Below, piece after piece: positions 2,183 to 34,079 of a DNA stretch of 35,241 bases. The stretch comes from Chlorobiota bacterium (lineage in GTDB: Bacteria; Bacteroidota; Bacteroidia; Bacteroidales; VadinHA17). A program made the position numbers and the translations under genes. The stretch lies in contig JAADHC010000014.1 in NCBI GenBank assembly GCA_013152085.1, forward strand, positions 1-35,241, written 5' to 3'. The stretch's first letter is position 1, and each line of letters starts with the position of its first letter. The notes under the pieces were generated by a model, which saw nothing but the letters and a program-made list of their open reading frames with translations, did not search any database and was not told the DNA's origin.

Positions 2183-2186
2183 TAAA

Positions 2187-16177: not shown

Positions 16178-16252
16178 CAGGACTCGAACCTGCACGCTCT
16201 TGCGAGCACTAGTCCCTGAAACTAGCGCGTCTACCAATTCCGCCATCTGGGC
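16169..16252 (-). tRNA. tRNA-Leu, anticodon CAG
   Basis: The 84-base gene starts GCCCAGATGGCGGAATTGG and ends TTCTGGGCA. The acceptor stem is 7 bp (GCCCAGA/TCTGGGC). The anticodon arm is CTAGT-TTCAGGG-ACTAG with CAG, and the variable arm is GCTCGCAAGAGC. The T arm carries GTTCGAGTC. CCA is not encoded. It reads CUG codons. Upstream (16311-16334) an inverted repeat GCTACAA/TTGTAGC and a TATTTTTG box on the minus strand may belong to its promoter. Confidence 0.96.
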
Positions 16253-18245: not shown

Positions 18246-19967
18246 TTAAAACGTTTGTAACTGATGAACATACGTGCCTTTTTCATCATACATATGAACA
18301 GCACATGCAATACACGGATCAAAAGAGTGTATTGTTCTCAGAATTTCAAGGGGTTTCTCCGGATCGGCAATCGGTGTACCGATCAGTGAGGATTCGCACG
18401 CAGACATCTGCCCGTACGGATCACGCGGTGATGCATTCCAGGTACTGGGAACAACAAGCTGATAATTATCAATCACTTTATCCTTAATGACAATCCAGTG
18501 CGCCAGTGCCCCCCTGGGTGCTTCGGATAGTCCGACCCCTTTGGCCTCGTCCGGCCATGTTTTAGGATCCCATTTGCTGTTATTGAACGTACGGGTATCC
18601 CCGTTTTTGATATTCGAAATCAGTTGATTAAAGATTTCCATCGCCCATCCGGCCACCAGTTTCGTTTCAAGGCCACGTGCTGCCGTCCGGCCCAGCGTGG
18701 AGAACAGCGCAATAACGGGTACATCCAGATGTTTTAATGCAGCATCGACCACCTCTTTAAACTCATCACGTCCGGATGCATAGCCAACCAGCACTCTGGC
18801 TAATGGGCCTACCTCCATAGGATGCCCTTTCCATCGTGGTGTCTTAATCCACGAATATTTTCCTGCTACATTTAATTGATCGTATGGTGGTTCCGGTCCT
18901 GTATATTTTAGGTTTGTTTTCCCATTCCATGGATGCTCACCGGTAGTATCTCCGTCAGTATATTCATACCAGGAGTGTGCAATATATTCCTGAATCTGTT
19001 CCGGATCCGTGCCGTCAATCTCCATGACCTCATTGAGGTTTCTGTTGAGGATCACTCCCCGCGGGAATTTAAATTGGGAAACATCCTGGTATCCATTCAC
19101 CGGCAGATCACCATAAGCAAGATAGTTGGTCAGCCCGCCACCTATGGCTCCCCAATCATTCTTATAGAACGAGGCAATGGCCAGCAGATCGGGAATATAT
19201 ACCTGCTCGACAAATGTTTTTGCATCTTCAAGAAGTTTCTGAACCATCGCAAAACGCTCTGCGTTCAAAGCGTTGGCTTCATCCAGGTTTATTGCACAGG
19301 GTACTCCTCCAACCAGGTAGTTCGGATGTGGATTTTTCCCTCCGAAGATGGCATGAACCTTGACGATTTCCTTCTGCCATTCCAGTGCTTCGAGATAATG
19401 GGCTACGCCGATCAGGTTCACTTCCGGAGGCAGTTTGTATGCCTTATGTCCCCAGTAACCATTCTGGAATATTCCAAGCTGACCACTTTCTACAAATTTG
19501 GTGATTCTCTTCTGAAGATCGCTAAAATAACCCGGTGAATTTCTAGGCCAGTTTGAAAAAGACTGGGCCAAGCCGGCGGCAGCAGCAGGATCTGCTTTGA
19601 GGGCGGAAATAACATCCACCCAGTCGAACGCATGCAGATGGTAAAAATGAACTACATGATCCTGCATGTACTGAGCAGCAAACATCAGGTTACGGATCAT
19701 TTCGGCATTGGGCGGAACAACAATATCGAGAGCATCCTCAACGGTTCTTACCGAAGCCAGGGCATGGACGGTAGTACATACACCACAAACCCTTTCGGTA
19801 AAGGCCCAGGCATCGCGCGGATCCCGTCCTTTAAGAATTTTCTCTATCCCCCGGACCATTGTCCCTGAGTTGTAAGCGTCGACAATTTTTCCGTCCTGTA
19901 TCTCTACTTCAATACGCAGATGTCCTTCTATTCGTGTAATCGGATCAACAACAATTCTTGCAGTCAT
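18246..19967 (-). CDS. hyaB: [NiFe]-hydrogenase large subunit
   Basis: The 573-residue catalytic subunit of a group 1 membrane-type uptake hydrogenase, which oxidises H2 at a NiFe(CN)2CO centre. Nickel-binding motif L1 is RVCGVCTTVH (59-68; Cys61, Cys64, His68) and L2 is DPCIACAVH (550-558; Cys552, Cys555). After His558 a 15-residue tail (MYDEKGTYVHQLQTF) remains for removal by the maturation protease after nickel insertion, agreeing with hyaD in the same cluster. TRIEGHLRIE at 11-20 is the conserved N-terminal signature. AGGAGG lies five bases before the ATG. It follows hyaA by 42 bp. Confidence 0.97.
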   Translation of the reverse strand: MTARIVVDPITRIEGHLRIEVEIQDGKIVDAYNSGTMVRGIEKILKGRDPRDAWAFTERVCGVCTTVHALASVRTVEDALDIVVPPNAEMIRNLMFAAQYMQDHVVHFYHLHAFDWVDVISALKADPAAAAGLAQSFSNWPRNSPGYFSDLQKRITKFVESGQLGIFQNGYWGHKAYKLPPEVNLIGVAHYLEALEWQKEIVKVHAIFGGKNPHPNYLVGGVPCAINLDEANALNAERFAMVQKLLEDAKTFVEQVYIPDLLAIASFYKNDWGAIGGGLTNYLAYGDLPVNGYQDVSQFKFPRGVILNRNLNEVMEIDGTDPEQIQEYIAHSWYEYTDGDTTGEHPWNGKTNLKYTGPEPPYDQLNVAGKYSWIKTPRWKGHPMEVGPLARVLVGYASGRDEFKEVVDAALKHLDVPVIALFSTLGRTAARGLETKLVAGWAMEIFNQLISNIKNGDTRTFNNSKWDPKTWPDEAKGVGLSEAPRGALAHWIVIKDKVIDNYQLVVPSTWNASPRDPYGQMSACESSLIGTPIADPEKPLEILRTIHSFDPCIACAVHMYDEKGTYVHQLQTF

Positions 19968-19972
19968 AATAA

Positions 19973-19978
19973 CCTCCT
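19973..19978 (-). promoter_or_regulatory. Strong Shine-Dalgarno site of hyaB
   Basis: AGGAGG on the minus strand with five bases before the ATG at 19965-19967. Most other genes here lack such a site, as usual in Bacteroidota. Confidence 0.75.
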
Positions 19979-20009
19979 GTTTTATTCGTTTTGATCTTCA
20001 GGTTTTTGT

Positions 20010-21080
20010 TTACCTTCCCGGATCAGTATTCTTTTCCGGATGTTTGTTAACGGTATACGTAGTCATATTGGTAACGGCGGCCATACCAACAGTAAGGCTG
20101 ATACCATCGGCAGTGGTTTCCGTACCCAAGTCGGGGACACTGGAGAAAATCTCATAGAACGGACCATTGTCCCAGAAGTACGCCTCGCTGCATCCTATAC
20201 ACGGATGGCCTGATTGTATCGGGAAGCTGGTTCCTTCATTCCACTTAATCACTCCACAGGAGTTATAGGTTATAGGTCCGCGGCATCCCATTTCAAAGAA
20301 GCAGTAACCGCGTTTTGCATTTTCATCATCGAAAGACTCAACAAAGAGACCGTCATCGAAGTTTGTACGGCGATAGCAAGTATCATGTACTCTGCAGGAA
20401 TAAAAGACCTTAGGTCGGCCCAAACCATCTAATTGGGGAATCCTGTCAAAAGTCAGGAGATGTACCACCACACCGGCCATCACTTCGGCAACCGGAGGGC
20501 ATCCGGGCACATTGATAACCGGTTTACCTTTGATCAGCCGCTTAACCGGTGTTGCTCCCGTTGGATTTGGTGCAGCAGCCTGTACATTTCCGTAACAGGA
20601 ACAACTTCCCCAGGCAATAATCGCTTTGGCCCCTTCAGCAGCTTCCTGAAGAATTTCATAAGCAGTTTTCCCTCCAATACAACAGTATGTATTATTCTTT
20701 GTAGGTACAGATCCTTCTACCATCAGCAAATATTCACCATAGTATTTTTCCATGGTCTGATGGAGGTTTTCTTCAGCCTGTTGGCCGGCAGCAGCCATCA
20801 GGGTTTCGGTATAATCCAGTGATATCTTATCCAAGATAATATCAGCCACAATGGGGTGGGACGAACGGATAAAACTCTCACTACAGCCGGTGCACTCCTG
20901 GAAATGCAGCCAAACTACCGGCAGACGGGACTTCATTTCCATGGCCTGAACAATCCGGGTAACCCCGCTATATTCAAGGCCCATCATCGCACCCATCATA
21001 CCGCAGAATTTAAGGAAATCGCGGCGCGAATAACCTTTTGAGCGTATTTCCTCATACAAAGTTGGAGTTTTTTTAGACAT
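20010..21080 (-). CDS. hyaA: [NiFe]-hydrogenase small subunit, Tat-exported
   Basis: The 356-residue Fe-S subunit has a Tat signal (SRRDFLK, 18-24), so the enzyme faces the periplasm. Proximal [4Fe-4S] ligands are CTGC (Cys63, Cys66), GSC (Cys160) and PGC (Cys194). Distal ligands are His232, Cys235, Cys260 and Cys266; the medial [3Fe-4S] cluster has Cys275, Cys294 and Cys297. The two extra cysteines that create the oxygen-tolerant six-Cys proximal cluster are missing (CTGC not CTCC; YGN where E. coli HyaA has WGC), so a standard, oxygen-sensitive centre is likely. An unusual Cys162 follows Cys160. The C-terminal anchor (GISLTVGMAAVTNMTTYTVN, 326-345) is homologous to, but much less hydrophobic than, typical anchors. 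Confidence 0.96.
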   Translation of the reverse strand: MSKKTPTLYEEIRSKGYSRRDFLKFCGMMGAMMGLEYSGVTRIVQAMEMKSRLPVVWLHFQECTGCSESFIRSSHPIVADIILDKISLDYTETLMAAAGQQAEENLHQTMEKYYGEYLLMVEGSVPTKNNTYCCIGGKTAYEILQEAAEGAKAIIAWGSCSCYGNVQAAAPNPTGATPVKRLIKGKPVINVPGCPPVAEVMAGVVVHLLTFDRIPQLDGLGRPKVFYSCRVHDTCYRRTNFDDGLFVESFDDENAKRGYCFFEMGCRGPITYNSCGVIKWNEGTSFPIQSGHPCIGCSEAYFWDNGPFYEIFSSVPDLGTETTADGISLTVGMAAVTNMTTYTVNKHPEKNTDPGR

Positions 21081-21358
21081 TACTGTTAAATGGTTTATTG
21101 GTGAATCCCTTTCATTTTTTTAGTTTTTTCTCCTTTTAGTTGATACCTGTCTCACTTTCGAACTGCCCGTAAGGTTAACATCTTCACCCAATTCAGGCTT
21201 TCATAATTCTTTAGAAAATTCTATGCAAATAATCTGTCCCTTACAGTAAAAACGAGCCATACATTGATGACCTGATTCAGCGGAACTAGTCACCGTGTCA
21301 TTCATCCCAAGTCCAGACACAAGCATAACATTTGTGAATAACGATTTGTTACTTCCAG

Positions 21359-21374
21359 GTCAATAGTAATGCCA
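21359..21374 (-). promoter_or_regulatory. Candidate sigma-54 promoter of hyaAB
   Basis: On the minus strand TGGCATTACTATTGAC aligns with the consensus TGGCAYRNNNNTTGCW with correct GG-N10 spacing; the -12 dinucleotide is GA instead of GC and one further position deviates. It lies 279 bp upstream of the hyaA ATG. An 8-bp inverted repeat AAGTCCAG/CTGGACTT (21309-21316, 21406-21413) brackets it. The nearby gene for a sigma-54 activator supports the call. Confidence 0.45.
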
Positions 21375-21483
21375 AATTATTATTATCGTAACACATTCAT
21401 CAAGCCTGGACTTAACAATCTGATACACTGACATCTAAGTAATACGATGCGATAACCTACGCTTATAGAGAAAAACAAATGAT

Positions 21484-21521
21484 CCCGATGATATGCGGGT
21501 TTCCGCAGATGATCTGCGGAA
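21484..21521. promoter_or_regulatory. Two adjacent dyads, candidate enhancer for the sigma-54 activator
   Basis: TTCCGCAGAT and ATCTGCGGAA, separated by one G, form an almost perfect dyad at 21501-21521. Directly next to it CCCGATGATATGCGGG (21484-21499) has the same GATGAT centre with CCCG/CGGG ends. They lie about 120-150 bp upstream of the candidate sigma-54 promoter, a usual distance for activator sites. There is no T tract on either strand, so a terminator is unlikely. Confidence 0.5.
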
Positions 21522-21624
21522 TACCGTAATTTACACTTTTTTACTTTACGATAGGTGGTGTAAGAAAACATTAAATTTCCAGAACCTGAATAAGAAATAA
21601 ACGAACCAGATTGTTCAATGAAGG

Positions 21625-22629
21625 TTAATTAGAAAGTACAAAATTCCTGTGATGATCAGGAGTCACGATGCTGTATTTCTTGGCCTTGTCCCGGAAAGTG
21701 GACAGACTTAAACCCAGCAATCTGGCTGCTTTACTTTGATTATTATGGCTATTCTTCATGGCCAGCCTGATTAAAGTTTTTTCAAGGCATGATACAACAT
21801 CATTAAAGCGGACATGACTATAAACAAAACAATCCCGACAACTTTTAACAAGTGTTTCTCCCGCATCTGAATGCCTGATCTCATGGGGCAGTTCATCCAT
21901 GGTGATTCCCTTGTCCGCAAACAAACTAACCCGATGAATAACATTTCTCAGTTCACGTACATTGCCCGGCCAGCTATAGGACAACAAGGCATTCAATGCA
22001 TCAGGTAGTATCCTAAGCGATTTCTCAGGGGCATAATGTTTTAAGAAATGCTCTATTAACAACGGGATATCGTCAATCCTTTCGCGCAGGGGAGGTATAA
22101 TTACCGGCACCACATTCAACCTGTAATAAAGATCTTCGCGAAAAGATTTTTGCCGGACAAGTATTTTGAGGGGAACCTTTGAGGCGGATATTACCCGGAC
22201 GTCAACGTGTATATGCTTTATACCACCTACACGCATGAATTCCATATTTTCCAGAAAACGTAATAATTTTACCTGCATGTCCAGTGGCACATCATCAATA
22301 TCATCAAGGAAAATAGTTCCGGTATGTGCAACTTCTAACAATCCTTTCTTACTTTCCCCTGCACCGGTAAAAGCGCCTTTTTCATATCCGAAAAGTTCGC
22401 TGGATAACAATTCGTGGGGAATAGAGGAAAGGCTTACCCTGACTAAGGGGCGGGAATGACGCCGGCTGGCTTTGTGAATATACTCTGCAAAAATCTCCTT
22501 GCCAACCCCTGTCTCACCAATCAGCAAAACAGTAGAAGTGGTATTGGCAATCTTATTCACGCTTTGAATAATCCGCCGCATTTCCCTGTTCCGTGTGATA
22601 ATTGCTACTGATGTATTGACGGGTTTCAT
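21625..22629 (-). CDS. PspF-like sigma-54-dependent transcriptional activator
   Basis: The 334-residue protein has a AAA+ domain and a Fis-type DNA-binding end. Walker A is GETGVGKE (38-45), the sigma-54 contact loop is GAFTGA (85-90), Walker B is TIFLDD (105-110), and REDLYYRLNVVPVIIPPLRE with SWPGNVRELRN completes the family signature. NQSKAARLLGLSLSTFRDKAK near the C-terminus is the helix-turn-helix. No receiver or sensor domain precedes the AAA+ core, so its activity must be controlled by another protein, as with PspF, or by abundance. It lies between hypC (11 bp gap) and hyaA (544 bp gap), so hyaAB are its probable targets. Confidence 0.93.
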   Translation of the reverse strand: MKPVNTSVAIITRNREMRRIIQSVNKIANTTSTVLLIGETGVGKEIFAEYIHKASRRHSRPLVRVSLSSIPHELLSSELFGYEKGAFTGAGESKKGLLEVAHTGTIFLDDIDDVPLDMQVKLLRFLENMEFMRVGGIKHIHVDVRVISASKVPLKILVRQKSFREDLYYRLNVVPVIIPPLRERIDDIPLLIEHFLKHYAPEKSLRILPDALNALLSYSWPGNVRELRNVIHRVSLFADKGITMDELPHEIRHSDAGETLVKSCRDCFVYSHVRFNDVVSCLEKTLIRLAMKNSHNNQSKAARLLGLSLSTFRDKAKKYSIVTPDHHRNFVLSN

Positions 22630-22640
22630 GATGATCCAGT

Positions 22641-22916
22641 TTACTCCCTCGGTTGTTTCTCATCCCGAGGAAGGTCAAGGTCTGCCAGTTCACCCATGGT
22701 TTTCAAGGCATACAGCGTTTCCAGGGCATCCTGTTCATCCACCTTACTTAAGGCCATACCTACATGGGCTAAGACATAATCTCCTACTCCCACCTCTTCA
22801 GGCAGCCATTGTATACAAACGTCTGCAACCATACCACTGAAATCCACCCTGGCCATTTTCAGTTCAGGATCGGTATCATTAATCGAAATAATCCTTCCGG
22901 GAACAGCTAAACACAT
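22641..22916 (-). CDS. hypC: Hydrogenase maturation chaperone HypC/HupF
   Basis: This 91-residue protein begins MCLAVPGRII, the invariant N-terminus of HypC; Cys2 carries the Fe(CN)2CO precursor with HypD and contacts the large-subunit precursor. The body (ARVDFSGMVADVCIQWLPEE and VGDYVLAHVGMALSKVDEQD) matches the beta-barrel core and C-terminal helix of the family. It is followed after 11 bp by the sigma-54 activator gene. hypA, B, D, E and F are not in the window and must lie elsewhere. A Bacteroidota-type promoter is directly upstream. Confidence 0.95.
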   Translation of the reverse strand: MCLAVPGRIISINDTDPELKMARVDFSGMVADVCIQWLPEEVGVGDYVLAHVGMALSKVDEQDALETLYALKTMGELADLDLPRDEKQPRE

Positions 22917-22936
22917 TACTACTGTTATTTAATTAA

Positions 22937-22967
22937 CAAATATAAATAAACTCACGTAATAATACAA
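22937..22967 (-). promoter_or_regulatory. Bacteroidota-type promoter of hypC
   Basis: On the minus strand a TTG (22965-22967), 20-base spacer and TATATTTG (22937-22944) match the -33/-7 pattern. The predicted transcription start lies about 14 bases before the hypC ATG. Confidence 0.5.
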
Positions 22968-23044
22968 TAATAAATAATATACTTTGCAACATATTACCGG
23001 TAAAAAATCATTTAAGCCAAAATGAACGAGACTTTGGTTCCGGG

Positions 23045-23503
23045 TTATAGTAGCATAATTAATTCCCGGACTTTTTTGAAAATGATTTTCATACTCTTTG
23101 ATACATTAGGAGTAAGTTCCGTTCCCATCACAGCAAAGGAGTTCACCGAAACTGTCACCAGAAATAATTCCGGCATTTGCTCGGTTATCTGCAATGCATC
23201 AATCAAATCCTTCAAGCCAATATCATGAGCACCAAGTGAAGGTGGGAAATCGTACGAAAACCGGGGTTTAAGCAAAGAAACAGTACCAGGAGGGTCAGTA
23301 CTGAGCGTGGCATCAATCATCACCACTTTCCTGTATTTTGCCATCTCCGACAACAATTGAAAACCTCCTGTCCCCCCATCAAGAAAAACAACATACCTGG
23401 GCCATTTTTTTTCCTGAAGATATTTTATGGCATGTACTCCGACACCTTCATCTCCCATCAGTACATTTCCAATACCCAGAATCAGTATTTTATCATGATT
23501 CAC
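23045..23503 (-). CDS. hyaD: Hydrogenase maturation endopeptidase
   Basis: The protease removes the C-terminal tail of the nickel-loaded large subunit. The 152-residue protein has the HybD/HyaD fold signature GIGNVLMGDEGVGVHAI (10-26) and nickel-sensing residues: Glu19 (or Asp18), Asp64 (MIDA) and His93 (AHDIG), equivalent to Glu16, Asp62 and His93 of HybD. The start codon is GTG (23501-23503). It is the first gene of the hydrogenase cluster; a 128-bp gap with a promoter separates it from hypC. Its presumed substrate is HyaB with the DPCIACAVH site. Confidence 0.93.
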   Translation of the reverse strand: MNHDKILILGIGNVLMGDEGVGVHAIKYLQEKKWPRYVVFLDGGTGGFQLLSEMAKYRKVVMIDATLSTDPPGTVSLLKPRFSYDFPPSLGAHDIGLKDLIDALQITEQMPELFLVTVSVNSFAVMGTELTPNVSKSMKIIFKKVRELIMLL

Positions 23504-23570: not shown

Positions 23571-24842
23571 CTATCCCAAACGGGTGAGAAAAAAACCGGT
23601 AAAGATTCCAAGGTAGTTTCCGATTACATATCCGATTATCCCTGTAGTAAGTCCCGAAATGATCACCTCCCGGTTACGCAGGGCACCGGCAACAACCGGC
23701 ACAAACGGAGGGGAATAGATCAGAGCCGTGGATGTAATAATCACGGTATCGGAATCAATTCTGAAAATCATCGAAAGGAAAATATGGATCAGCAGCGATC
23801 CGAAATACACCAATGCAACATACATCATCAGGTCAAGATATTCAATATTCAGCATTCTCCGCAGATCAGCCATCGAAGAGACAACCAGACAGAAAACAAT
23901 AATCAGGTACATACCGGTCTGATAGGTCTTTTCAATCCTGTTTATGGCGGGGATCAGTGCCAAACCCAACCCCAGGGTTGTAATAGTCAGGATCACCACA
24001 GCCATCATGGATTTTTCGCCGGCCAGTAATCCCAAAGCCCCGCCAGTGGCAAAGATCAGAATCGATAAACCGAAAGCAAGCAACAATCGAGGGAAAATCC
24101 GGCGTGAAAATATCCCCGAGTAATCATCCATCTCCTTCGCCTCTTGTTCAAGTTGTTCTACAGGAATATCCGTATTGTTAAATTTAAACGGCGGCAGGAA
24201 GATCCGGAAAAATCTCTGTGCAACAGTTAATAAAAAGAGCAGGCAAACAGCACCTATAACAATATCGGTAGTGTGTGTCATGATGAAAATATCCGGATCA
24301 ACGTTCAGGGCGGTTTTTATCGCCGCCAGGTTTGGGGTTCCACCCGAATATATACCGATAAGCATCCCTGCAATTTTACCCAGTTCGGGAATTTTGGACC
24401 TGAAAATAAAATATCCTGCAAATACGACAACGACTACGGAGATCAAGGCCAGGATAAGGGAAAGGAAGGTTGTACCTGCCAGGCGAAACCATTTACGGAT
24501 ATCCAGTGAAAACAATAAAAGCGGTATAGCCAATGGTATGGTAATGGTTGTTATCATATCCTGAACGGAAGCGATCTGGTTGCGTACAACATCATGATAT
24601 GTGATTGTCCCCTTTGAAAACAACTCCTGCACCTGGTCTGCAGGTAATGCGGTCTGGCCCTGCACAAGCTGATGATACATATCCGACACTGCCGGAAAGA
24701 TCCCGATATTTCCCAGCAACAAACCAATTCCATAAGCAAGCACAACCGCACCTACTTTATATAGAAAAGTAGATTTTGAGGTTGCATAAATAAGAAGTGC
24801 CGGAAAGAGGAAATAAAAGAGAACAAGGATAACCATATACAT
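23571..24842 (-). CDS. DUF819-family integral membrane protein
   Basis: From the ATG at 24840-24842 the protein has 423 residues and about 11 membrane helices. An upstream TTG in the same frame would add 19 polar residues and seems less likely. GYFIFRSKIPELGKIAGMLI, GIYSGGTPNLAAIKTAL and the cytoplasmic loop around EQEAKEMDDYSGIFSRR are typical of DUF819, a transporter-like family of unknown function. The stop lies 67 bp upstream of hyaD on the same strand; whether it is co-transcribed with the hydrogenase genes is unclear and no functional link is known. Confidence 0.85.
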   Translation of the reverse strand: MYMVILVLFYFLFPALLIYATSKSTFLYKVGAVVLAYGIGLLLGNIGIFPAVSDMYHQLVQGQTALPADQVQELFSKGTITYHDVVRNQIASVQDMITTITIPLAIPLLLFSLDIRKWFRLAGTTFLSLILALISVVVVVFAGYFIFRSKIPELGKIAGMLIGIYSGGTPNLAAIKTALNVDPDIFIMTHTTDIVIGAVCLLFLLTVAQRFFRIFLPPFKFNNTDIPVEQLEQEAKEMDDYSGIFSRRIFPRLLLAFGLSILIFATGGALGLLAGEKSMMAVVILTITTLGLGLALIPAINRIEKTYQTGMYLIIVFCLVVSSMADLRRMLNIEYLDLMMYVALVYFGSLLIHIFLSMIFRIDSDTVIITSTALIYSPPFVPVVAGALRNREVIISGLTTGIIGYVIGNYLGIFTGFFLTRLG

Positions 24843-24899
24843 ATCTGAATTGTTTTTATGGAGATTCAAATCTATAATTTTTTTTTTATATGCTATCAA

Positions 24900-25083: not shown

Positions 25084-26829
25084 TTAACGGAGGATTTTCC
25101 GTACAAAAGCAACCGTGAAATAGGACATCATAAACAGGCCGACAAAACCTTCAAAACCTGAGATCCACCGGATAATTCCCGAAGGATAATAATCGCCATA
25201 ACCAATGGTAAGAAACGTAATGGCACTGTGGTAAAATGCAACGGCAACGCTGGATAATTTATCCGGATCTCCCAGGGAAGATACAATATGTGTATCGAAA
25301 ATAAACGGAAGAAAGATGTATATAAGTGTAAAAATCAGGAATGAAAATACCATGGAAATGAGCACCCTTACAGGATCGGTGGCATAGAGTCCGATTTTAT
25401 CAAAGACAAGCCATTTAAAACCAAATTGCGGCCATGCCCACAGCCAGTACCATTTGCTTTTCTTTTTCTGCACTTCCAGATCGGCTATTGCTTCAAATCT
25501 TTTAAACTGAACATAAGCCTTGTCTTCATCCACATACTGGCCTGTCACACTGAAATTTTCTTTCAGTATTCTGAATTGTTCGGCTTTCAGGCGATTACTA
25601 CTCTCCTGTTTACAGATCATTTTCTGCACTTCATTATCCTGCCAGTCGATATATATTCTGCCCAAAAGGCGCATTCCCGCGAGGTTCATAACATCAATCA
25701 TTACTTCCTGATCATAAGGCTGGAAGTCAATAATATCCCGTGCAATCGTATCTGACAAATCCAGGTAACCGCAATGAGCAACCCGCAGATCGAGATAATG
25801 ATCCAGATGACATGACTGCAGGCTTAACAGCCCGAATCTCCCGCCAAGGAATGAAATATCTCCTTCTCCCATATCACTCTTTTCAAAAAACAGTTCCGCA
25901 TTTTCAAACTCAGCCAGTTCGAAACTTACGGATCCTTTCCCCAGGGCAGCACGTTTAAAGCTGAAACGTCCGCTCAGCATCTCACTACCTTCGAAAGTTA
26001 TTTCCCCCTGTCCGAATACCGACCGGTTAAAGTTTATCCGGCCTTTATTGAATTCCACCGCCCTGAAATCCACACGGCAGTCACCAAAATCAGCCCGCTC
26101 GAAGCTGATGTCCCCTTTACCGAATTTGGCATAATGGAAATCAACCTTACCGCTTTTCACCCGCATAATTTTAAAGCTGACATTTCCTTCACCAAAATCA
26201 GCATTGATAAAAGAAAGTTCTCCACGGTCAAATTCACAATTGGCAAAAGAAACCTCCCCCGGACCAAAGGAACAATATTGAAAATCCTTTTTCCCTGCGC
26301 CAAATACCGAATTATTAAATTTCTTAATTCCGGCACCAAAACTCACATTACCAAAATCCACAACCCCCTCCCTGAAATACACATGATCGAACCGCACATC
26401 TCCGTCACCAAAAAAAACTGAATTAAAACTGACCGGGCCATAAGCAAAATGTGTTTCATCAAAAACCACCCCGCCCTCTTCAAAACGGGCAAATGAAAAA
26501 TCCGTTCCGAATTTTGATTCATAAAAAGCTGACGAAGACTGAAACGAGCGGATGATAACTGTGGATTTTTTCTCCAGTCCGCGAGTACTTCTGTATTCCG
26601 TAAGAGAAAAGTTGTGCACATAACACTGATCCAGGATCACCGGCTTGCCTTCATCAATCCATTTGTAGATTTCTTCGTTTTCCTGATATCCCAGGATTTC
26701 TACAGCCAGTTTGGTTTTCTTGTTATCAAAGAATGTAATAATGGCTGTTTTGGGATGAACAATATGGTTGTCGGAAGTGAATTTCAGATTTTTAATATCC
26801 ACTGTATAATGATCGTAGTCAGTACGCAT
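25084..26829 (-). CDS. Ion channel with an N-terminal dodecapeptide-repeat beta-solenoid
   Basis: The 581-residue protein has three parts. Residues 1-115 are an unrecognised globular domain. Residues 116-331 are exactly 18 consecutive 12-residue repeats with consensus F-G-x-G-x-V-x-F-x-x-x-x, without insertion or deletion; phenylalanines recur at positions 1 and 8 and glycine at 4. After a bridge (KENFSVTGQYVDEDKAYVQF, 423-442) residues 486-580 form a two-helix pore: TM1 (486-511), pore loop SAITFLTIGYGDYYPSG (535-551) and TM2 (555-577). TIGYGD is a K+ selectivity filter. Pentapeptide-repeat domains fused to such pores are known in bacteria, but here the period is 12, so a different right-angled solenoid is implied. 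It probably assembles as a tetramer with a large cytoplasmic needle. Confidence 0.85.
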   Translation of the reverse strand: MRTDYDHYTVDIKNLKFTSDNHIVHPKTAIITFFDNKKTKLAVEILGYQENEEIYKWIDEGKPVILDQCYVHNFSLTEYRSTRGLEKKSTVIIRSFQSSSAFYESKFGTDFSFARFEEGGVVFDETHFAYGPVSFNSVFFGDGDVRFDHVYFREGVVDFGNVSFGAGIKKFNNSVFGAGKKDFQYCSFGPGEVSFANCEFDRGELSFINADFGEGNVSFKIMRVKSGKVDFHYAKFGKGDISFERADFGDCRVDFRAVEFNKGRINFNRSVFGQGEITFEGSEMLSGRFSFKRAALGKGSVSFELAEFENAELFFEKSDMGEGDISFLGGRFGLLSLQSCHLDHYLDLRVAHCGYLDLSDTIARDIIDFQPYDQEVMIDVMNLAGMRLLGRIYIDWQDNEVQKMICKQESSNRLKAEQFRILKENFSVTGQYVDEDKAYVQFKRFEAIADLEVQKKKSKWYWLWAWPQFGFKWLVFDKIGLYATDPVRVLISMVFSFLIFTLIYIFLPFIFDTHIVSSLGDPDKLSSVAVAFYHSAITFLTIGYGDYYPSGIIRWISGFEGFVGLFMMSYFTVAFVRKILR

Positions 26830-26882: not shown

Positions 26883-29789
26883 CTACTCCCGGTCACGACA
26901 GGTATCTGCAAAAGGACAATATTTACACCGGTCAATGATTTCAGTCTGTTCAAACGGAATTTCCCGGTTTAACATCTTGAGGATTAACCCGGAGAGAGAA
27001 TCTTCAAATTCAGCATGAATGTCACGGTAATCGTTTAATTTCTCATTATCCAGAATCAGCCGCATATCCGGTTTTTCCAAATGCATCATCCTGAGGAAAT
27101 AAAGTTGCGGCTGAATACTTTCATTATTGTTCCTGTACCTCATCCATGAATACAAAAAGATCTGGAATGCACCACCGTTACGTTTTTTATCCGAAGGATC
27201 AAACAGCGTCCCGATATTTTTAATTTCCTGCCCCGGGCTGCCTGTTTTATAGTCGATAATATGCAACAGGCCGTCACGGATATCAATCCGGTCGATCTTT
27301 CCTTTTAGTATCACCGTTCCCGCAATATCAGCATTATCCGTCTCAAGATTACATGCTACCGGCTCTTCCAGCTCTTTTATCGTAAAAGGCGCCTGGCACT
27401 TATCAAACCGCAGAGTCTTCAGGATAAATTTTCTGACTGCATGCTTCAGAATATTTCTGAATCCGCCTGTACCGTCCGTAACCGTATGTCCCTGAGAAGG
27501 AAAAATTTCCTGAAATGCCTGATCTATAACCTCCTCAACCGTAGTCTGATCGCCTGTCAACCTGTCAAACATTTCCGGAGTTACCGTTTTTTCCAGATAA
27601 GGCCGGTAGATCAGTTCCATGGCCTTGTGATATAATGTCCCCATCAATGCCTGATCAACATCGTCGGTAAGCTCATCGGGTTCGCGGATATCTGCAATAT
27701 AGCGAAAATAAAACCGGAGGGAACAATCAATGTAGGTATTGAGGGCACTGGGAGAAATCCCTTCAGCCAATATTGCCTTCAATTTCTTCATAACAGGATC
27801 ATCTTTGGCGATACGGATCTGCGGTGCGGTTTTCATTTCCGGGGTAAACGCCAGAGTTTGCCGTGTTAAGGTCATTCCCAGTAAATATTCAAGCTGAGGG
27901 ATAAACCTGCTCATTTCTCCGGTCTGACCACCTTCCGCATCCGTATGATACACGAGGGCAACCTCACGGGCACGCTGGATCAGCCTGAGAAAATAATAGT
28001 TATAAACGGTATCATGATAGTCAAATGTCGGCATTCCGAATCCTTTGCGAAGATTATACGGAATAAAAGAATTCACTGCAGAGATACCTTTAGGCAGTGC
28101 TTTTTCGTTTACGGACAAAAGAATGACCCTGTCAAAATCGAGAAGCCGGGTTTCCAGCATTCCCATAACCTGGAGACCGGCCAGCGGTTCACCGTAAAAG
28201 GGTATCTTTACCGTACCTGCCATCCGCGTAAGCAGTTTCAGGTAAAGGATAAAAGTATTCCCTGTCTCTTTTCCGGGTTTCAGCACCGGCCACAGGTCAC
28301 GGTAATCTCCCAGGGAATCATTTAAACGGTTTATCAGAATATACAACTGATAATAGGCTTCCACATTAAACCCGTTCCCTGCCTGATCTTCCGGATGATC
28401 TGATTCAGGCGGAACAACTAGATAGTAAAGGACGTCTGTTACGTGCCGTGAAAGCATAAAAGCATCAGGCTCAGGCTCAAACAGCGGTTTTAAAATACCT
28501 GTATCCGGAAGGTCAGCCGGATCAATCCACAGGATATTCAGTTTTTTCACCCTTTCCTCCCACTGTTTCCAGACCGGAGAACGTAAATGATTTACTACCG
28601 GATGATGCATAATCTCGAGAATCCTGGTAGTATGAAAGCGTAAACTCTTTTTATCCCGCAGTGCGTGGATATGCAGTTCCATAACCAGTGAGAACAAACC
28701 GAAAACAGGCGTATTCTTTACCGGAAACCCCATGGTTATATTGATTTCCTCAATCTCCGCGGGAACGGCATGAACAACCGGAAGCAACAACTGTTCATCG
28801 GCCAGTACCAGGGCTGTCCTTTCCGCCCTGAATCCGGGTTCACGGTTCCATTTTCCGATAAGTTTTTTTACAACAGCCGATTGTGCTGTGCGCGCAGGTG
28901 CTGTATATATCTCTATCCGTTTCTTATCAACGGTCAGGTTGTTAAAAATTCCGGCATTTTCCGGAGGCGGGAATTTATTTTTATACCTGCGGATAAAGGT
29001 TCCGGCGTCACGTCCCGTACCGGCACTCATTTCAGGATTTTCAAGATAAGCTACATCATAATCCCAGAAAAATACCCCTCGTGTACTCCTTTTAAATTCC
29101 TCAAAAAGCTTCTCCTCAGCAGGTGTGAGTGCATGAAAGCCGGCAAAACAGACCTTCTCCCACCTGTTCCCAGGAAGTTTACCATCTTCTGCCATCCCGG
29201 CAACTTTCCGGTACAGTCTTCCTTCATAGGCCATCTCTTTTCCTGCAAGCCGCTGATTAAATAAAGTATAGATCTTTCCCAGGTGTTCCCACAGGGAAGC
29301 AAAGGCCCTGCTTTCATCCGATTCCCGGTTTCCGGGAAAATGATCCCAGAACTGCCGGATCAGTTTCTTTTGTTCATCGTCCAGGTAGGAAATCTCAATG
29401 GTCTTCAGCGATTTCAGGTTTTTAAACAAATCATCCGCATTTACGAGATATTTATCCAGATCATCGAAATCCCCCAGGAGCATCTCCCCCCACGGATAAA
29501 AACTGTCGAGCGGTTCCTGTTGTTCCCCCGGTAAAACTTCAGACCATACCCTGTACAGTTCCATCACCAGCGGAACCGTATCGGTTACGGACATCCCGGT
29601 GAGATGTTCCATCAGGTTGCGAATGGTAAAAATCTGCGGTGACCATACCGTGCTACCGGCAAGATGGGAAAGATGATGCTGAAACCACAAACCGGCCCTG
29701 CGGTTCGGAAAAATCATTGCTACCCGGTGCAGATGCTCGGGGTGATTTTTCAGTATATAACCGGCAATATATTCGAGAAATGCTGTCAT
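26883..29789 (-). CDS. addB: AddB-like helicase-nuclease subunit
   Basis: The 968-residue protein is the second subunit of an AddAB-type double-strand-break resection enzyme. It has a degenerate SF1 helicase body (MIFPNRRAGLWFQHHL at the start, FDRVILLSVNEKALP near 552-566) and a C-terminal RecB-type nuclease. The active-site phrase IIDYKTG (Asp846, Lys848) is present, and four cysteines suited to an Fe-S cluster bracket the nuclease: Cys689 (YIDCSLRFYF), Cys955, Cys958 and Cys964 (CKYCPFADTC). Its ATG overlaps the end of the radical SAM gene by 4 bp, and addA lies just beyond. Only 53 bp separate it from the channel gene downstream. Confidence 0.88.
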   Translation of the reverse strand: MTAFLEYIAGYILKNHPEHLHRVAMIFPNRRAGLWFQHHLSHLAGSTVWSPQIFTIRNLMEHLTGMSVTDTVPLVMELYRVWSEVLPGEQQEPLDSFYPWGEMLLGDFDDLDKYLVNADDLFKNLKSLKTIEISYLDDEQKKLIRQFWDHFPGNRESDESRAFASLWEHLGKIYTLFNQRLAGKEMAYEGRLYRKVAGMAEDGKLPGNRWEKVCFAGFHALTPAEEKLFEEFKRSTRGVFFWDYDVAYLENPEMSAGTGRDAGTFIRRYKNKFPPPENAGIFNNLTVDKKRIEIYTAPARTAQSAVVKKLIGKWNREPGFRAERTALVLADEQLLLPVVHAVPAEIEEINITMGFPVKNTPVFGLFSLVMELHIHALRDKKSLRFHTTRILEIMHHPVVNHLRSPVWKQWEERVKKLNILWIDPADLPDTGILKPLFEPEPDAFMLSRHVTDVLYYLVVPPESDHPEDQAGNGFNVEAYYQLYILINRLNDSLGDYRDLWPVLKPGKETGNTFILYLKLLTRMAGTVKIPFYGEPLAGLQVMGMLETRLLDFDRVILLSVNEKALPKGISAVNSFIPYNLRKGFGMPTFDYHDTVYNYYFLRLIQRAREVALVYHTDAEGGQTGEMSRFIPQLEYLLGMTLTRQTLAFTPEMKTAPQIRIAKDDPVMKKLKAILAEGISPSALNTYIDCSLRFYFRYIADIREPDELTDDVDQALMGTLYHKAMELIYRPYLEKTVTPEMFDRLTGDQTTVEEVIDQAFQEIFPSQGHTVTDGTGGFRNILKHAVRKFILKTLRFDKCQAPFTIKELEEPVACNLETDNADIAGTVILKGKIDRIDIRDGLLHIIDYKTGSPGQEIKNIGTLFDPSDKKRNGGAFQIFLYSWMRYRNNNESIQPQLYFLRMMHLEKPDMRLILDNEKLNDYRDIHAEFEDSLSGLILKMLNREIPFEQTEIIDRCKYCPFADTCRDRE

Positions 29790-30772
29790 TCTTTTCCGTA
29801 AAGTATCCGGGTTTCCACAGGTTCATAATATTTTCCCTGCCAGGTATTTTTTTCTTCCATATACCGGAGGATCTCCTCAAGTATTGTATAAGTCCTTCTT
29901 CTGCCCCAATCGGGTGCAATCAGAAAATCCGGAGGCGTTTCACCTGTCAGGCGGTCAATCTGAATGTTTGGATTCAGGCGCTCAAGAAACCGTACGATAA
30001 AAGGGATGTATTCTTCGTGTGAAAACAACGGGAAATCCATCGGATTACTCCGGTATTGTTCTGCCATCACCGTACCCTTGACGATCTGCAACTGATGAAA
30101 TTTCAATGCATCAAACGGCAGGGCTGAAAGAGTCACCGCCTCGGCAAGCATCTCATCACGGCTTTCCCCCGGCAGGCCGAAAATAATATGGCCTGTGGTT
30201 CTGATTCCTTTTGCAGCGGTTTTTCTTACCGTTTCTTCAGTCTTGCTGAAGGTATGTCCCCTGTTTATTTTTTCCAGTGTTTTGTCATAACAGGATTCTA
30301 TCCCGTACTCCACGGCCACAAAATATCGTTCCTGCATCCCGGCAAGGAAGTCCAGTATCTTGTCGTCAATGCAATCGGGACGGGTGGATATGACCAGCCC
30401 CTTCACTCCGGGAACATCTAAAGCTTCCTTATAAAGCATTTTAAGTTTGCCGGGCGGAGCATAGGTATTGGAATAAGCCTGAAAATAAGCCAGGTAATAG
30501 TTTGACCTGCGATACCTGCGCCTGTGAAATACGATCCCTTCTTCGAGTTGCTGTTTTACGGATTTTTCAGGCCGGCAATATGAGGGATTAAAGGCATCAT
30601 TGTTACAATATGTACATCCACCGCGTCCGTACGTACCATCCCTGTTTGGACAGGTAAAACCGGCATCAATCGAAAGTTTTTGCACCCGTTCACCGAACAG
30701 CCGTTTATAAAAGCCTGCCGTACTGTTCAGACGTCGTGAATCACCCCAGGGATATATTTTTTCTGCCGTCAT
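29786..30772 (-). CDS. Radical SAM protein, TIGR01212/YhcC family
   Basis: The 328-residue protein resembles the YhcC family: GERVQKLSIDAGFTCPNRDG (27-46), then GRGGCTYCNN, giving Cys41, Cys53 and Cys56 (C-X11-C-X2-C) as ligands for the SAM-binding [4Fe-4S] cluster. GLVISTRPDCIDD, EYGIESC and HIIFGLPGESRDEM are typical radical SAM barrel motifs. The reaction is unknown; the family is related in sequence to Elp3-type proteins. The gene overlaps addA by 32 bp at its start and addB by 4 bp at its end, so all three are translationally coupled. The start ATG (30770-30772) is supported by the family-like N-terminus. Confidence 0.88.
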   Translation of the reverse strand: MTAEKIYPWGDSRRLNSTAGFYKRLFGERVQKLSIDAGFTCPNRDGTYGRGGCTYCNNDAFNPSYCRPEKSVKQQLEEGIVFHRRRYRRSNYYLAYFQAYSNTYAPPGKLKMLYKEALDVPGVKGLVISTRPDCIDDKILDFLAGMQERYFVAVEYGIESCYDKTLEKINRGHTFSKTEETVRKTAAKGIRTTGHIIFGLPGESRDEMLAEAVTLSALPFDALKFHQLQIVKGTVMAEQYRSNPMDFPLFSHEEYIPFIVRFLERLNPNIQIDRLTGETPPDFLIAPDWGRRRTYTILEEILRYMEEKNTWQGKYYEPVETRILYGKE

Positions 30773-33700
30773 TTTCTTTCTTTTCCGGATGAATAAATTC
30801 CTTCTTTTCGAGTGTTACATACCAGATCACTCCGGTTACCGGCACATATCCCATACCCGAAAGGCTTTTCATATAACGCTTTACCTGGCTGCGGTAGCCG
30901 GGTTCTTCCTTTTCCCCGAATTTATAATCCACGACCACAACCTCTTTGTCTCTGACCATCACCCTGTCTGGTCTGAGGAAGGCTCCGTCCGGCCTGATCA
31001 GGGGCATTTCGTTTAACACTTCCCACGTACCCGAAAACCATCCGGCTGCCTCAGGATCACGGATTATCTTTCGCAATCTTTCCACATACTGCTGTTCTTC
31101 ATTCACAGGGATCATCCCTTCCCTGACAGTCCTGCGCACAACGGGTTCAATATCCGCCGAAGTATAAATGCCGGCAAGCAATTCATGAAACAGATTTCCC
31201 CGGTCTATTTTTTCAGTCTGTCCGGTTTTTTTCAGCAGAAAATATTTTCGCCCCCGGGGTAAAAAACGGACACGGTGCAATACAGGCGTTACGGGAAACT
31301 CTCCCACCGTTTCCGGTACGGGAGTCACCCTCTTTTCCCCGGGTGGTTCATAAGAACCAAATTCCGCCACATCCTGCTCCTGTGTGTGGACATCACGCAT
31401 CTTCAAAACATCGTCATCCCGTTCTTCCTTCAGTTTTTCCATTACGTTATAGATAAACGTTCCTGTTGTTGCTGTTCCTTTATCACTGCAGGCAAAAACG
31501 TACATCTGACTGATTGCCCGTGTAAGCGAGACATACACCAGATTAAGATTGTCAATATATCTTGAAACCTTTTCGTGCAAATACTCTTTACTGAAAAGAG
31601 AATGTAAAAGGAGATTCTTCGAAACAACAGGAATATCACGCATCATATCAAATGGTTTCCGGTCGCTGTGGCACCATAAAATATCCGGGTTATTCCCACC
31701 CGTGATCTCAAAAGCCCAGTCGGCAAAAGGCAGAATAACGACATCCATTCCCAGCCCCTTTGCTTTATAGATGGTCATCACCCTGACCGCATTCAATCCT
31801 TCGGGCATTGGAATTTTTTCATCTTTTCCCTGTTCTTCCCACCAATTCAGGAAAGATGAAATGCCGGTTCCGCCCTGTAAGGTATGATCCAGTGCTTTGT
31901 TTTCGAGTGCATACAAAAACGGAACTTCGCCGGACAGTTTTCCAAGGCCGAAATATCTGATTACTTCCCTGATGATTTCGGTTAACGGTAAACCACCCAG
32001 CCGGTCAAAAAAAATTTCATCCAATCCGGAAAGAAAATATTTCCATCGTTCCCTGCCGGTCATTCCGGCAGCAGAAGCATCCGTAAGCGGTCTTGGTTTT
32101 GCATCCACCGGGATGACCGGACGCAATACCGTATAATAAAACCGGCTGAATATCAACAAATCGTCCGGCTGTTGCATAAGCTGTAACCATTCAATAACCA
32201 GCCGTACCGCCACCGACTGGTCCAGATCCAGGGCCTCATCCGAAATAACAGAAAAACGCGGGCTGTCCGGATGTTCCTGCTGCCATGCGATCAGATCCCT
32301 GACCATGCGGGCCCCTTCTTCGTTTTTTCGCACCAGCAGTGCAATTTGTCCCGGCTCATATCCGTCACGAATCAGGGAATCTACTTTTTCGCAAACGGCT
32401 GCCGATGCTGCGTCCTGCCAGTTGTCATGATCCTTTTTACTGAAAAACCGGAAATATACATAACCACCGGAAACATCCTTATTATCCGGCAGGTCCTGAC
32501 GAAGTTTGTCAAAACTGTATGCAGTGCGGATCAATTCCGTGTATTCCGAGACATCATCAATTGCCATAAGCGGCCGTTGCTTATTCATTTCCCGTATTTT
32601 GTTAATATATGCTTCCATAAGCACTTCCGGGGCGATTCTGAAAAAGGCATTGTTAAACCGGACAATATTTTCCCGGCTACGGTAATTTTTTTTAAGCGGT
32701 ACGCTTTTGATCTGTTCCGGCAGAAAATCTTTTGGAACTTCCTTTACCATAATGGCCCAGTCACTGTTCCGCCACCTGAAGATCGACTGTTTGATATCTC
32801 CCACCAGCATCAAATCATCCCCCCGGGCAAGGCTGTCTTTTAACAACGGACGAAGGTTATGATATTGAAAATGCGATGTGTCCTGGAACTCGTCAAGCAG
32901 ATAATAACGAAAATGCTGCCCGATCTTTTCATAAATAAACGGCAACTCATTGTTCCCGATGATCCCTTTCAGAAAACGGTTCACCTCGGCAATCAGGAAA
33001 CGGTTTTCCTCCCTGATCCACCGGTGAATATACTCCCGGAGCATGATCTGCACACCATACACGTGCAATGTCGATACAAGCGAAGTTGCAGCGGCATACG
33101 CCGGAAAATGAGTGGTATAATATTGCGCTATCTCCCTGAACAGCGGCAGCAGTTCGTGATGAACGAGGTGTTGTTTCTCCGTATCATTCCGGTCGGATTT
33201 TGGCAGAATGTTTTCCGGATCATCGAGCGCCCTGATGAAATAAGAAGTGTGGTGCAGATTGCCTTCCATCATTTTCGGAAACATGGATGGTACACTGCTT
33301 TTTTTGTAACTGAAATCTTCGGGAACCATCCCGTACTTTTCAAGAATCTCCATCCCGGTCTTTCCCAGTTCCTTTATGCGGGTTTCATAGCTTTTGATGA
33401 TCTTATAGAGCTCTTGCTGAAATTTACTGATCAGTTCCAGGGGATTGCTACTGCCCGGAACAAGAAAATTTTCAGAAAAGACCTGGCTGCCTTCACGTAT
33501 CAGTTTGGTCCGGATATCCCATTTTCCTTCCTCACTGTACCGGTCTACAAAATCCACCAAAAACCGGAATAACGGTTCCCCGGGCCTGCTTTCCTCGAGC
33601 ATCCGGTCAACCGACTCAGCTACAGCCTGCCGGTTGTCCAACTCAATCACATATCCGAAAGGCAGTCCCGTTTCACGTGCAAACTCACGCATTACACGCT

Positions 33701-34079
33701 GAAAGAAGCTATCAATCGTATAGACGGAAAAAAAAGAATAATCAAACAAAAGATCCCGCAGTACTTCACGGGCACGTTTGATCACTTCATCACCGGAACC
33801 GTTCAGGGCTTTTTTAAGATCAGGAAGGTACGCTGCAGCTTGTTTCGCTGCCGGATCCGAACTTCCGGAAGGGTTCCCGAGTAACGTAAGTCCGTACAGA
33901 ATCCTGAGAATTCGTTCTTTTATTTCAGCCGTTGCCTTGTTGGTAAAGGTTACCGCCAGCACGGAACGGTATCCCGCCTGTCGGGACAATATAATCGAAA
34001 GATACCGTGTTACCAGCGCAAAGGTTTTTCCGGCTCCGGCCGATGCTTCAAATACATATAAAAAGGAAGGAAGATTCAT
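30741..34079 (-). CDS. addA: AddA-like UvrD/RecB-family helicase-nuclease
   Basis: The 1112-residue SF1A helicase is the motor and one nuclease of AddAB. Walker A is ASAGAGKT (12-19), followed by AVTFTNKATAEIKERI (42-57; motif Ia). Walker B is LLDEFQDTS (394-402), then LMLVGDIKQSIFRWR with the motif III arginine region. AVRVMTIYKAKGLGMDVVILPF is motif V/VI territory, and LVYVSLTRA a later motif. The RecB nuclease near the C-terminus has VVVDYKFGE with Asp1051 and Lys1053. No Cys cluster is seen, consistent with AddA. It is the first gene of the addA-radical SAM-addB operon. Confidence 0.93.
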   Translation of the reverse strand: MNLPSFLYVFEASAGAGKTFALVTRYLSIILSRQAGYRSVLAVTFTNKATAEIKERILRILYGLTLLGNPSGSSDPAAKQAAAYLPDLKKALNGSGDEVIKRAREVLRDLLFDYSFFSVYTIDSFFQRVMREFARETGLPFGYVIELDNRQAVAESVDRMLEESRPGEPLFRFLVDFVDRYSEEGKWDIRTKLIREGSQVFSENFLVPGSSNPLELISKFQQELYKIIKSYETRIKELGKTGMEILEKYGMVPEDFSYKKSSVPSMFPKMMEGNLHHTSYFIRALDDPENILPKSDRNDTEKQHLVHHELLPLFREIAQYYTTHFPAYAAATSLVSTLHVYGVQIMLREYIHRWIREENRFLIAEVNRFLKGIIGNNELPFIYEKIGQHFRYYLLDEFQDTSHFQYHNLRPLLKDSLARGDDLMLVGDIKQSIFRWRNSDWAIMVKEVPKDFLPEQIKSVPLKKNYRSRENIVRFNNAFFRIAPEVLMEAYINKIREMNKQRPLMAIDDVSEYTELIRTAYSFDKLRQDLPDNKDVSGGYVYFRFFSKKDHDNWQDAASAAVCEKVDSLIRDGYEPGQIALLVRKNEEGARMVRDLIAWQQEHPDSPRFSVISDEALDLDQSVAVRLVIEWLQLMQQPDDLLIFSRFYYTVLRPVIPVDAKPRPLTDASAAGMTGRERWKYFLSGLDEIFFDRLGGLPLTEIIREVIRYFGLGKLSGEVPFLYALENKALDHTLQGGTGISSFLNWWEEQGKDEKIPMPEGLNAVRVMTIYKAKGLGMDVVILPFADWAFEITGGNNPDILWCHSDRKPFDMMRDIPVVSKNLLLHSLFSKEYLHEKVSRYIDNLNLVYVSLTRAISQMYVFACSDKGTATTGTFIYNVMEKLKEERDDDVLKMRDVHTQEQDVAEFGSYEPPGEKRVTPVPETVGEFPVTPVLHRVRFLPRGRKYFLLKKTGQTEKIDRGNLFHELLAGIYTSADIEPVVRRTVREGMIPVNEEQQYVERLRKIIRDPEAAGWFSGTWEVLNEMPLIRPDGAFLRPDRVMVRDKEVVVVDYKFGEKEEPGYRSQVKRYMKSLSGMGYVPVTGVIWYVTLEKKEFIHPEKKENDGRKNISLG

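What the first reader, a model, noticed from the sequence alone, without database searches (positions are those of the whole stretch)
25084..26829. Potassium-channel-like pore fused to 18 perfect-period 12-residue repeats
Residues 116-331 are 18 uninterrupted copies of F-G-x-G-x-V-x-F-x-x-x-x, exactly 12 residues each, followed by a TIGYGD two-helix pore. Pentapeptide-repeat channels have a period of five; a strict period of 12 with two Phe per repeat and a Gly turn implies a different solenoid, possibly one turn per two repeats. The N-terminal 115 residues are also unassigned. A rigid cytoplasmic rod on a tetrameric pore could be a novel gating or tethering device.
Basis: partly seen in the sequence, partly recalled or inferred. 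Interest (0 to 1): 0.75.

Follow-up and report, generated by a model that had tools for sequence, protein, structure and literature searches.

The report
Solenoid-armed potassium channel family in Bacteroidota
This gene encodes a two-helix potassium-type channel carrying a long coiled protein arm in front of the pore; the arm's 12-residue repeat and the arm-plus-pore layout are each already known elsewhere, and the nearest solved structure is HalA, a DNA-gated bacterial immune channel, so this is a distinctive new version of a known kind rather than a new kind.

Summary
Observation confirmed with corrections. ORF 25084-26829 (-) encodes 581 aa with 18 gap-free 12-residue blocks (residues 116-331; lag-12 matches 69 against 19 expected, 0 of 2000 shuffles) and a C-terminal TIGYGD two-helix pore. 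Only 3 of 18 blocks carry the full FGxGxVxF, and about 150 residues separate repeats and pore. The repeat is not new: three actinobacterial 'pentapeptide repeat-containing proteins' have the same period 12 and score strongly to Pfam Pentapeptide_3. The layout (solenoid, helical collar, 2TM pore at the very C-terminus) also occurs in haloarchaeal and Aeromonas proteins, and the best solved match to the last coils, collar and pore is HalA (Z 12.5, 212 residues), the ssDNA-gated Hailong channel. In Bacteroidota it forms a family of nearly fixed length with conserved polar residues on the central coils. In 39 of 79 loci it lies directly behind an AddB-like nuclease gene; in 0 of 14 further copies from the class. 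Best reading: a K+ channel gated by ligand or partner binding to its cytoplasmic solenoid. Ligand unknown.

The parts
25084..26829 (-). ORF of 581 aa: N-terminal cap, beta-solenoid, helical collar, 2TM K+-type pore
   Evidence: AlphaFold2 model mean pLDDT 91.3
26521..26829 (-). N-terminal cap, residues 1-103: mixed beta/alpha, conserved in the family, no family match found
   Evidence: strands and helices; alignment A4; no Pfam match to this part; best PDB sequence match E 0.51
25837..26484 (-). 18 repeats of 12 residues (residues 116-331), 24-residue coils in the model
25987..26280 (-). central coils, residues 184-281, with conserved polar residues (Q184, N197, N209, K220, D230, H232, E244, R245, D254, R256, N268, R269, E280); that they face outward is inferred from the repeat register
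25630..25836 (-). last, less regular solenoid coils, residues 332-400
   Evidence: from residue 344 on superposed on HalA
25393..25629 (-). helical collar, residues 401-479, with invariant Q418 K423 G430 E435 D436 Y439 F442 R444
   Evidence: hhalign to an Aeromonas solenoid channel across collar and pore, E 1.9e-14
25090..25374 (-). pore domain, residues 486-580: outer helix, pore helix, filter, inner helix that ends the protein
   Evidence: PF07885 E 1.7e-9; helices 486-510, 527-541, 552-580
25192..25209 (-). selectivity filter TIGYGD, residues 541-546
   Evidence: T541, G543, G545 invariant in the 69 aligned proteins; filter variants
26883..29789 (-). AddB-like PD-(D/E)XK nuclease, 53 nt upstream on the same strand
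   Evidence: PF12705 E 1.1e-35; TIGR03623 and AddB models match below their cut-offs; directly upstream in 39 of 79 loci
29786..30772 (-). MnmL/YtqA radical SAM tRNA-modification protein
   Evidence: TIGR01212 E 1.3e-91, above cut-off
30741..34079 (-). AddA/RecB-like helicase-nuclease
   Evidence: PF00580 E 7.4e-35; RecB-like helicase and AddA models match below their cut-offs

Best explanation
A tetrameric two-helix K+-type channel of the inner membrane. Each subunit carries a cytoplasmic beta-solenoid arm (two 12-residue repeats per 24-residue turn), joined through a helical collar to the outer helix of the pore; the inner helix ends the protein, so there is no C-terminal gating domain. The arm is the sensor: a ligand or partner binds the conserved polar face of the central coils, the collar moves, and the outer helix opens or closes the pore. 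Shown by tools: sequence, solenoid model, pore family, collar similarity, conserved residues, HalA-like fold of the C-terminal 238 residues. Inferred: tetramer, K+ selectivity, cytoplasmic side, outward position of the conserved residues, gating through the arm. Unknown: ligand, sign of gating, physiological role.
For: Ion_trans_2 matches 69 of 69 aligned proteins, with T541, G543, G545 invariant. AlphaFold2 model pLDDT 91.3, pTM 0.80, strands recurring every 24 residues. The C-terminal 238 residues modelled alone match HalA best: Foldseek E 2.5e-3, probability 1.00; VIA Z 12.5, rmsd 3.2, 212 residues over model 1-238, whereas the next rows (Z 10.8 and below) mostly align the pore alone. The full model also has HalA as its only Foldseek hit with E <= 0.001. 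Collar plus pore align to an Aeromonas channel (hhalign E 1.9e-14, 155 columns), and pore plus part of the collar to a haloarchaeal pentapeptide channel (E 8.1e-15, 142 columns). Repeat positions 9 and 10 are more conserved in the central nine repeats than outside (difference 0.17 in JSD, permutation p 0.009, 38 representatives at 70%). Length is nearly fixed: 53 of 68 aligned relatives show no coil-sized indel.
Against: No function, ligand or tetramer was tested; only a monomer was modelled. pLDDT is 69-87 over residues 481-581, and the second model is weaker (81.9). Foldseek E-values for HalA are modest (9.1e-4, 2.5e-3), and PDB sequence searches did not list HalA (the list was cut at 60 of 293). 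A third channel, L108, aligned only over the pore (84 columns). The centre effect is not special to positions 9 and 10: position 5 has nearly the same difference (0.166, p 0.03), position 12 p 0.03, positions 3, 5 and 12 together p 0.006, core positions 1 and 8 p 0.02; only position 3 shows none (p 0.51). The solenoid could equally serve assembly or tethering.
Confidence: 0.55

Rival explanations
1. A HalA-like DNA-gated channel tied to AddAB: single-stranded DNA or DNA-end products made or removed by the AddAB-like nuclease in the same operon bind the solenoid and set the channel, so that a phage blocking or replacing this activity opens it.
For: Nearest solved fold is HalA bound to oligodeoxyadenylate. 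An AddB-like gene is directly upstream on the same strand in 39 of 79 loci with gaps of 14-232 nt, and somewhere in the held flank in 43. The label is spread over several supported parts of the channel tree (7 changes, at least 5 forced by starred branches). Channel and AddB distances correlate (Mantel 0.60, 0 of 2000 permutations as high, 29 loci). HalA is held shut by HalB-made DNA (passages of PMC13275509, and PMC12657230).
Against: 0 of 14 full or near-full copies from other genomes of the class have AddB nearby (2 of the 14 are the same DNA as L053 and L055; 3.9-4.7 kb upstream were held for 13 and 1.4 kb for L102; a very divergent AddB could be missed). MnmL sits in the same operon without an obvious link. 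The solenoid is acidic overall (25 K+R, 34 D+E). No HalB-type nucleotidyltransferase was seen among the genes scanned; a cytidylyltransferase (CTP_transf_3, scanned in L056; same gene family in L058, L059) precedes the channel in three loci. Distances of AddB and MnmL correlate as well (0.64) and channel and MnmL less (0.37, 10 of 2000), so this shows shared descent only.
Confidence: 0.1
2. The solenoid is a structural spacer or tether: it sets the distance between the pore and a cytoplasmic or neighbouring-subunit partner and has no sensor role.
For: Regular, confidently modelled solenoid; near-constant length in 53 of 68 aligned relatives; the conservation peak is partly a general centre effect.
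Against: Charged residues conserved at 73-92% on the central coils; a plain spacer would not need them.
Confidence: 0.2
3. A constitutive or membrane-tension/osmotic K+ leak channel whose N-terminal arms are only an assembly platform.
For: No constant neighbour outside the AddB-linked loci; the 10 neighbour proteins scanned are transporters, enzymes, a regulator, TPR and outer-membrane proteins.
Against: Collar and inner helix hold many of the invariant columns, which suits a gated coupling; no direct data either way.
Confidence: 0.15

Closest known systems
HalA of the Hailong anti-phage system (PDB 9nyi)
   Same: Best structural match: last coils, helical collar and 2TM pore superpose over 212 residues (Z 12.5); only Foldseek hit with E <= 0.001 for the full model.
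   Different: In HalA at most 65 residues precede the matched part (match starts at HalA residue 66); here nine turns plus a cap precede it. HalA works with the DNA-synthesising HalB; no such partner was seen here, and no sequence match to HalA was listed.
Haloarchaeal 'pentapeptide repeat-containing protein' channels (P0005, Halalkalicoccus; P0006, Halomicrobium)
   Same: Same order: repeats, linker, 2TM pore at the very C-terminus.
   Different: Their repeats are classical pentapeptides (self-identity at lag 12 is 0.04 in both; peaks at lags 5, 10, 15 or 20). The N-terminal cap was not compared.
Actinobacterial 12-residue 'pentapeptide repeat-containing proteins' (P0002-P0004)
   Same: Same period 12; 31.6-38.3% identity to the window protein over the matched stretch.
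   Different: No channel match in Pfam; other N-terminal sequence, hydrophobic as read by eye.
Pentapeptide repeat proteins such as EfsQnr (PDB 2w7z)
   Same: Found by Foldseek with probability 0.99.
   Different: E-value only 0.037; classical coils have 20 residues (PMC8145042) against 24 here.

Membership tests
Two-helix K+-type channel (PF07885) | Curated profile score and TxGYG-type filter | tested here: met
   37.9 bits against cut-off 22.5; 69 of 69 aligned proteins match at E <= 0.01; T541, G543, G545 invariant
Two-helix K+-type channel (PF07885) | Tetramer that conducts K+ | not testable with these tools
   Only a monomer could be modelled; no assay
Pentapeptide repeat protein (PF13576 Pentapeptide_3) | Profile score above the curated cut-off | tested here: met
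   27.9 bits against 27, marginal; 17 of 69 aligned proteins match at E <= 0.01; the three actinobacterial period-12 proteins match strongly
Pentapeptide repeat protein, classical definition | Contiguous five-residue repeats, four per coil (PMC8145042, abstract) | tested here: not met
   Self-identity 0.14 at lag 5, 0.05 at lag 20, 0.32 at lag 12, 0.35 at lag 24; coil of 24 in the model
Pentapeptide repeat protein, classical definition | Right-handed quadrilateral beta-helix | tested here: inconclusive
Hailong HalA | Solenoid end, helical collar and C-terminal 2TM pore in HalA's arrangement | tested here: met
   Z 12.5, rmsd 3.2, 212 residues, HalA 66-356 on model 1-238
Hailong HalA | Adjacent HalB nucleotidyltransferase gene | tested here: not met
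   The two flanking genes are DUF819 and a PD-(D/E)XK nuclease, and none of 21 window proteins scanned with Pfam is a nucleotidyltransferase (not every window ORF was scanned). In relatives no gene family other than AddB, MnmL and AddA recurs in more than 21 of 79 loci; 10 neighbour proteins of relatives were scanned, one being a cytidylyltransferase
Hailong HalA | Binding of single-stranded oligo-dA and gating by it | not testable with these tools
   The HalA paper is not held, so its DNA-contacting residues could not be compared

The most novel reading that the evidence does not exclude
A vertically inherited relative of the Hailong channel in which the long solenoid arm reads DNA or nucleotide products of the AddAB-like helicase-nuclease encoded in the same operon, linking DNA-end processing or its sabotage by phages to membrane K+ conductance.
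Probability: 0.08. Interest if true: 0.8.

Novelty: new variant of a known kind. Interest (0 to 1): 0.42.

Why it matters
Solenoid-arm channels are found here under names such as pentapeptide repeat protein or potassium channel family protein, and HalA shows that one such channel is an immune effector gated by DNA. This Bacteroidota family has a different, 24-residue-per-turn arm, a nearly fixed length and conserved polar residues on the arm, so it is a good place to ask whether arm-gated channels are a general signalling class outside phage defence. Its linkage to AddAB in part of the family gives one concrete hypothesis to test.

Tried and rejected
Rejected: a new repeat family (same period 12 in actinobacterial pentapeptide proteins). 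Rejected as general: AddB partnership (0 of 14 further copies). Rejected as informative: the rows (Z 15.8-22.4, phage tailspikes, polysaccharide lyases and the like), which are generic long beta-helices; HalA was not among the 50 rows shown there, and that absence says nothing.

Led nowhere: PDB sequence searches did not list HalA with the window protein, its parts, its profiles or two other channels (two searches showed 60 of 293 and 60 of 151); N-terminal cap against PDB sequences (best E 0.51); viral contigs with A2 (56 pattern matches, none a relative); phages (no match); PADLOC (nothing for the channel); profile A3 in the phylum (28 of 296 genomes at E <= 1e-8, but beyond the window's own genome only partial matches, at best positions 97-239 of 239, other channels as far as three were read). 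Literature searches (also 33, 35 for HalA) listed no paper, by title or start of abstract, on this family or on a 12-residue pentapeptide-like repeat on a channel; the library holds only open-licence papers. The promoter scan found 5 sites against 4.9 in shuffles, and no terminator-like site lies just behind the gene.

Rows dropped: one search kept 80 of 85 confirmed stretches, 79 distinct loci. A1 holds the window protein and 68 of these 79; left out were L010, L022, L033, L042, L050, L062, L064, L071, L074, L075, L077 (cut, ambiguous letters near the start, or stops in the match frame). A2, A3 and A4 hold 27, 50 and 31 chosen loci plus the window. The tree holds 85 rows: the window, 72 of 79 loci with readings of 460 aa or more, and 12 of 15 second-set loci (L097 and L099 are the same DNA as L053 and L055; L105 is a remnant).

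Full report
Observation. The ORF at 25084-26829 (-) is real and encodes 581 aa. Residues 116-331 are 18 gap-free blocks of 12. Lag-12 self-identity is 69 matches against 19.1 expected, with 0 of 2000 shuffles as high. The motif is looser than stated: 3 of 18 blocks carry the full FGxGxVxF, 10 of 18 fit F..G.[VIL].F, and the eighth residue is Phe in 18 of 18. The pore starts about 150 residues after the last block.

Structure. With an alignment of the window protein and 68 of 79 related loci, AlphaFold2 gives mean pLDDT 91.3 and pTM 0.80. Secondary structure repeats at lag 24 (identity 0.89) far better than at lag 12 (0.62) or 20 (0.45). After the solenoid come the collar helices (401-406, 412-429, 432-457, 459-479) and the pore (486-510, 527-541, 552-580), and the inner helix ends the protein.

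Known repeat. tblastn of the window protein in plasmids finds 73 records, 64 of them Streptomyces, none covering 80% of the query; of the 30 listed, 28 have an annotated feature, 27 called pentapeptide repeat-containing protein. Three were read: self-identity peaks at lag 12 (0.55, 0.51, 0.64), and Pentapeptide_3 scores E 5e-29, 1e-16 and 7e-36. The window protein passes the same model narrowly, and 17 of 69 family members match it at E <= 0.01. The repeat is thus a known, already annotated kind, although it does not fit the classical definition of four five-residue repeats per coil (PMC8145042, abstract and passages seen).

Known layout. The last 238 residues match 17 plasmid records at E <= 1, best E about 6e-5. 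Eleven are haloarchaeal, named pentapeptide repeat-containing protein (7) or potassium channel family protein (4); one is an unannotated Aeromonas protein; the other five are channels of other bacteria. Two haloarchaeal proteins were read: classical pentapeptides followed by a pore at the very C-terminus. The Aeromonas protein aligns over collar and pore (hhalign E 1.9e-14); a Bacteroidota channel, L108, aligns over the pore only. Modelled alone (pLDDT 81.9), the last 238 residues match HalA best: Foldseek E 2.5e-3 and probability 1.00, VIA Z 12.5 over 212 residues, HalA 66-356. The next rows, other ion channels at Z 10.8 and below, mostly align the pore. HalA is the channel of the Hailong anti-phage system, held shut by DNA made by HalB and released by phage exonuclease (passages of PMC13275509; PMC12657230; PMC12657218; the original paper is not held). 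That HalA's DNA-binding part is called a crown domain is recalled, not read.

Family. The 79 loci from genome contigs have titles of Bacteroidota (Acetofilamentum checked), but that search reaches close relatives only and was capped. A match at E <= 1e-10 was found in 34 of 59 genomes of the family, fragments included, and 16 of 247 of the class, the window's own genome included in both. No phage record matches. Coil-sized changes are rare: 8 of 68 lack 23-24 residues and 7 of 68 carry 68-87 more; by reading the tree, each set lies in one supported clade, so two events suffice. The loss of 24 fits one turn; the gain, mostly 83-87, is about seven repeats or three and a half turns, which a 24-residue turn alone does not explain.

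Conserved face. Positions 9 and 10 of the repeats are more conserved in the central nine repeats than outside (difference 0.17, permutation p 0.009), with K220, H232, E244, R256, N268, R269 and E280 at 73-92% in 38 representatives. Other positions rise in the centre too: position 5 by nearly as much (0.166, p 0.03), positions 12 and 1/8 less (p 0.03, 0.02), position 3 not (p 0.51). So part of this is a general centre effect. I read the charged residues as a binding or interface face; that they point outward is inferred from the register, and the call does not show their role.

Neighbourhood. The gene lies 53 nt behind an AddB-like nuclease in a same-strand run AddA-like, MnmL, AddB-like, channel. 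In the 79 relatives AddB is directly upstream in 39; 35 have another neighbour and 5 show none. In L061 and L071 a CstA-like gene replaces MnmL between AddA and AddB (only the L061 copy was scanned). The adjacency label needs 7 changes on the tree, at least 5 forced by starred branches, against a mean of 28 in shuffles; counted with the four loci where AddB is near but not adjacent it needs 6. That fits an old linkage with losses, or several gains. It is not general: 0 of 14 full or near-full copies in other genomes of the class have AddB nearby (two are the same DNA as L053 and L055, and L102 had only 1.4 kb upstream). I therefore keep the AddAB-DNA idea as a low-probability rival.

Verdict. 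A real, well-conserved, arm-bearing K+-type channel family. Each element has a known relative; the combination of period-12 solenoid, cap, nearly fixed length and channel is a new variant. Mechanism: gating through the cytoplasmic arm is my best reading, by analogy to HalA and from the conserved residues, not from any test.

Noticed in passing
window 18246-23503 (-): NiFe hydrogenase cluster: large subunit 18246-19967, small subunit 20010-21080, sigma-54 activator 21625-22629, HypC 22641-22916, HycI protease 23045-23503.
   Followed up: no
window 23571-24899 (-): DUF819 membrane protein directly downstream of the channel; also behind the channel in 7 of 79 loci (L002-L007, L074), all close relatives.
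   Followed up: partly
window 16003-16089 and 16167-16252 (-): Two tRNA-Leu genes (gag, cag) close together.
   Followed up: no
L108:442-1857 (+): Another Bacteroidota channel with a long, possibly solenoid N-terminal part, followed by a gene at 1921-3186 with Cys pairs that recall an HNH-type nuclease (motif recalled, not tested); could be a defence-like pair.
   Followed up: partly
L107:613-1848 (+) and L112:1495-2601 (-): Related C-terminal pores with a different N-terminal part, helical-looking in L107 and pentapeptide-like in L112 (read by eye): the same pore end seems to be combined with several sensor domains.
   Followed up: partly
L022, L042, L050, L071, L075, L077, L105: Copies with stops in the match frame or reduced to a remnant; some may be real decay, some assembly errors.
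   Followed up: no
P0002-P0004 (L081, L083, L082): Actinobacterial plasmid proteins with long arrays of the same 12-residue repeat behind another N-terminal part, near recombinase, transposase or ATPase genes in two of the three records.
   Followed up: partly
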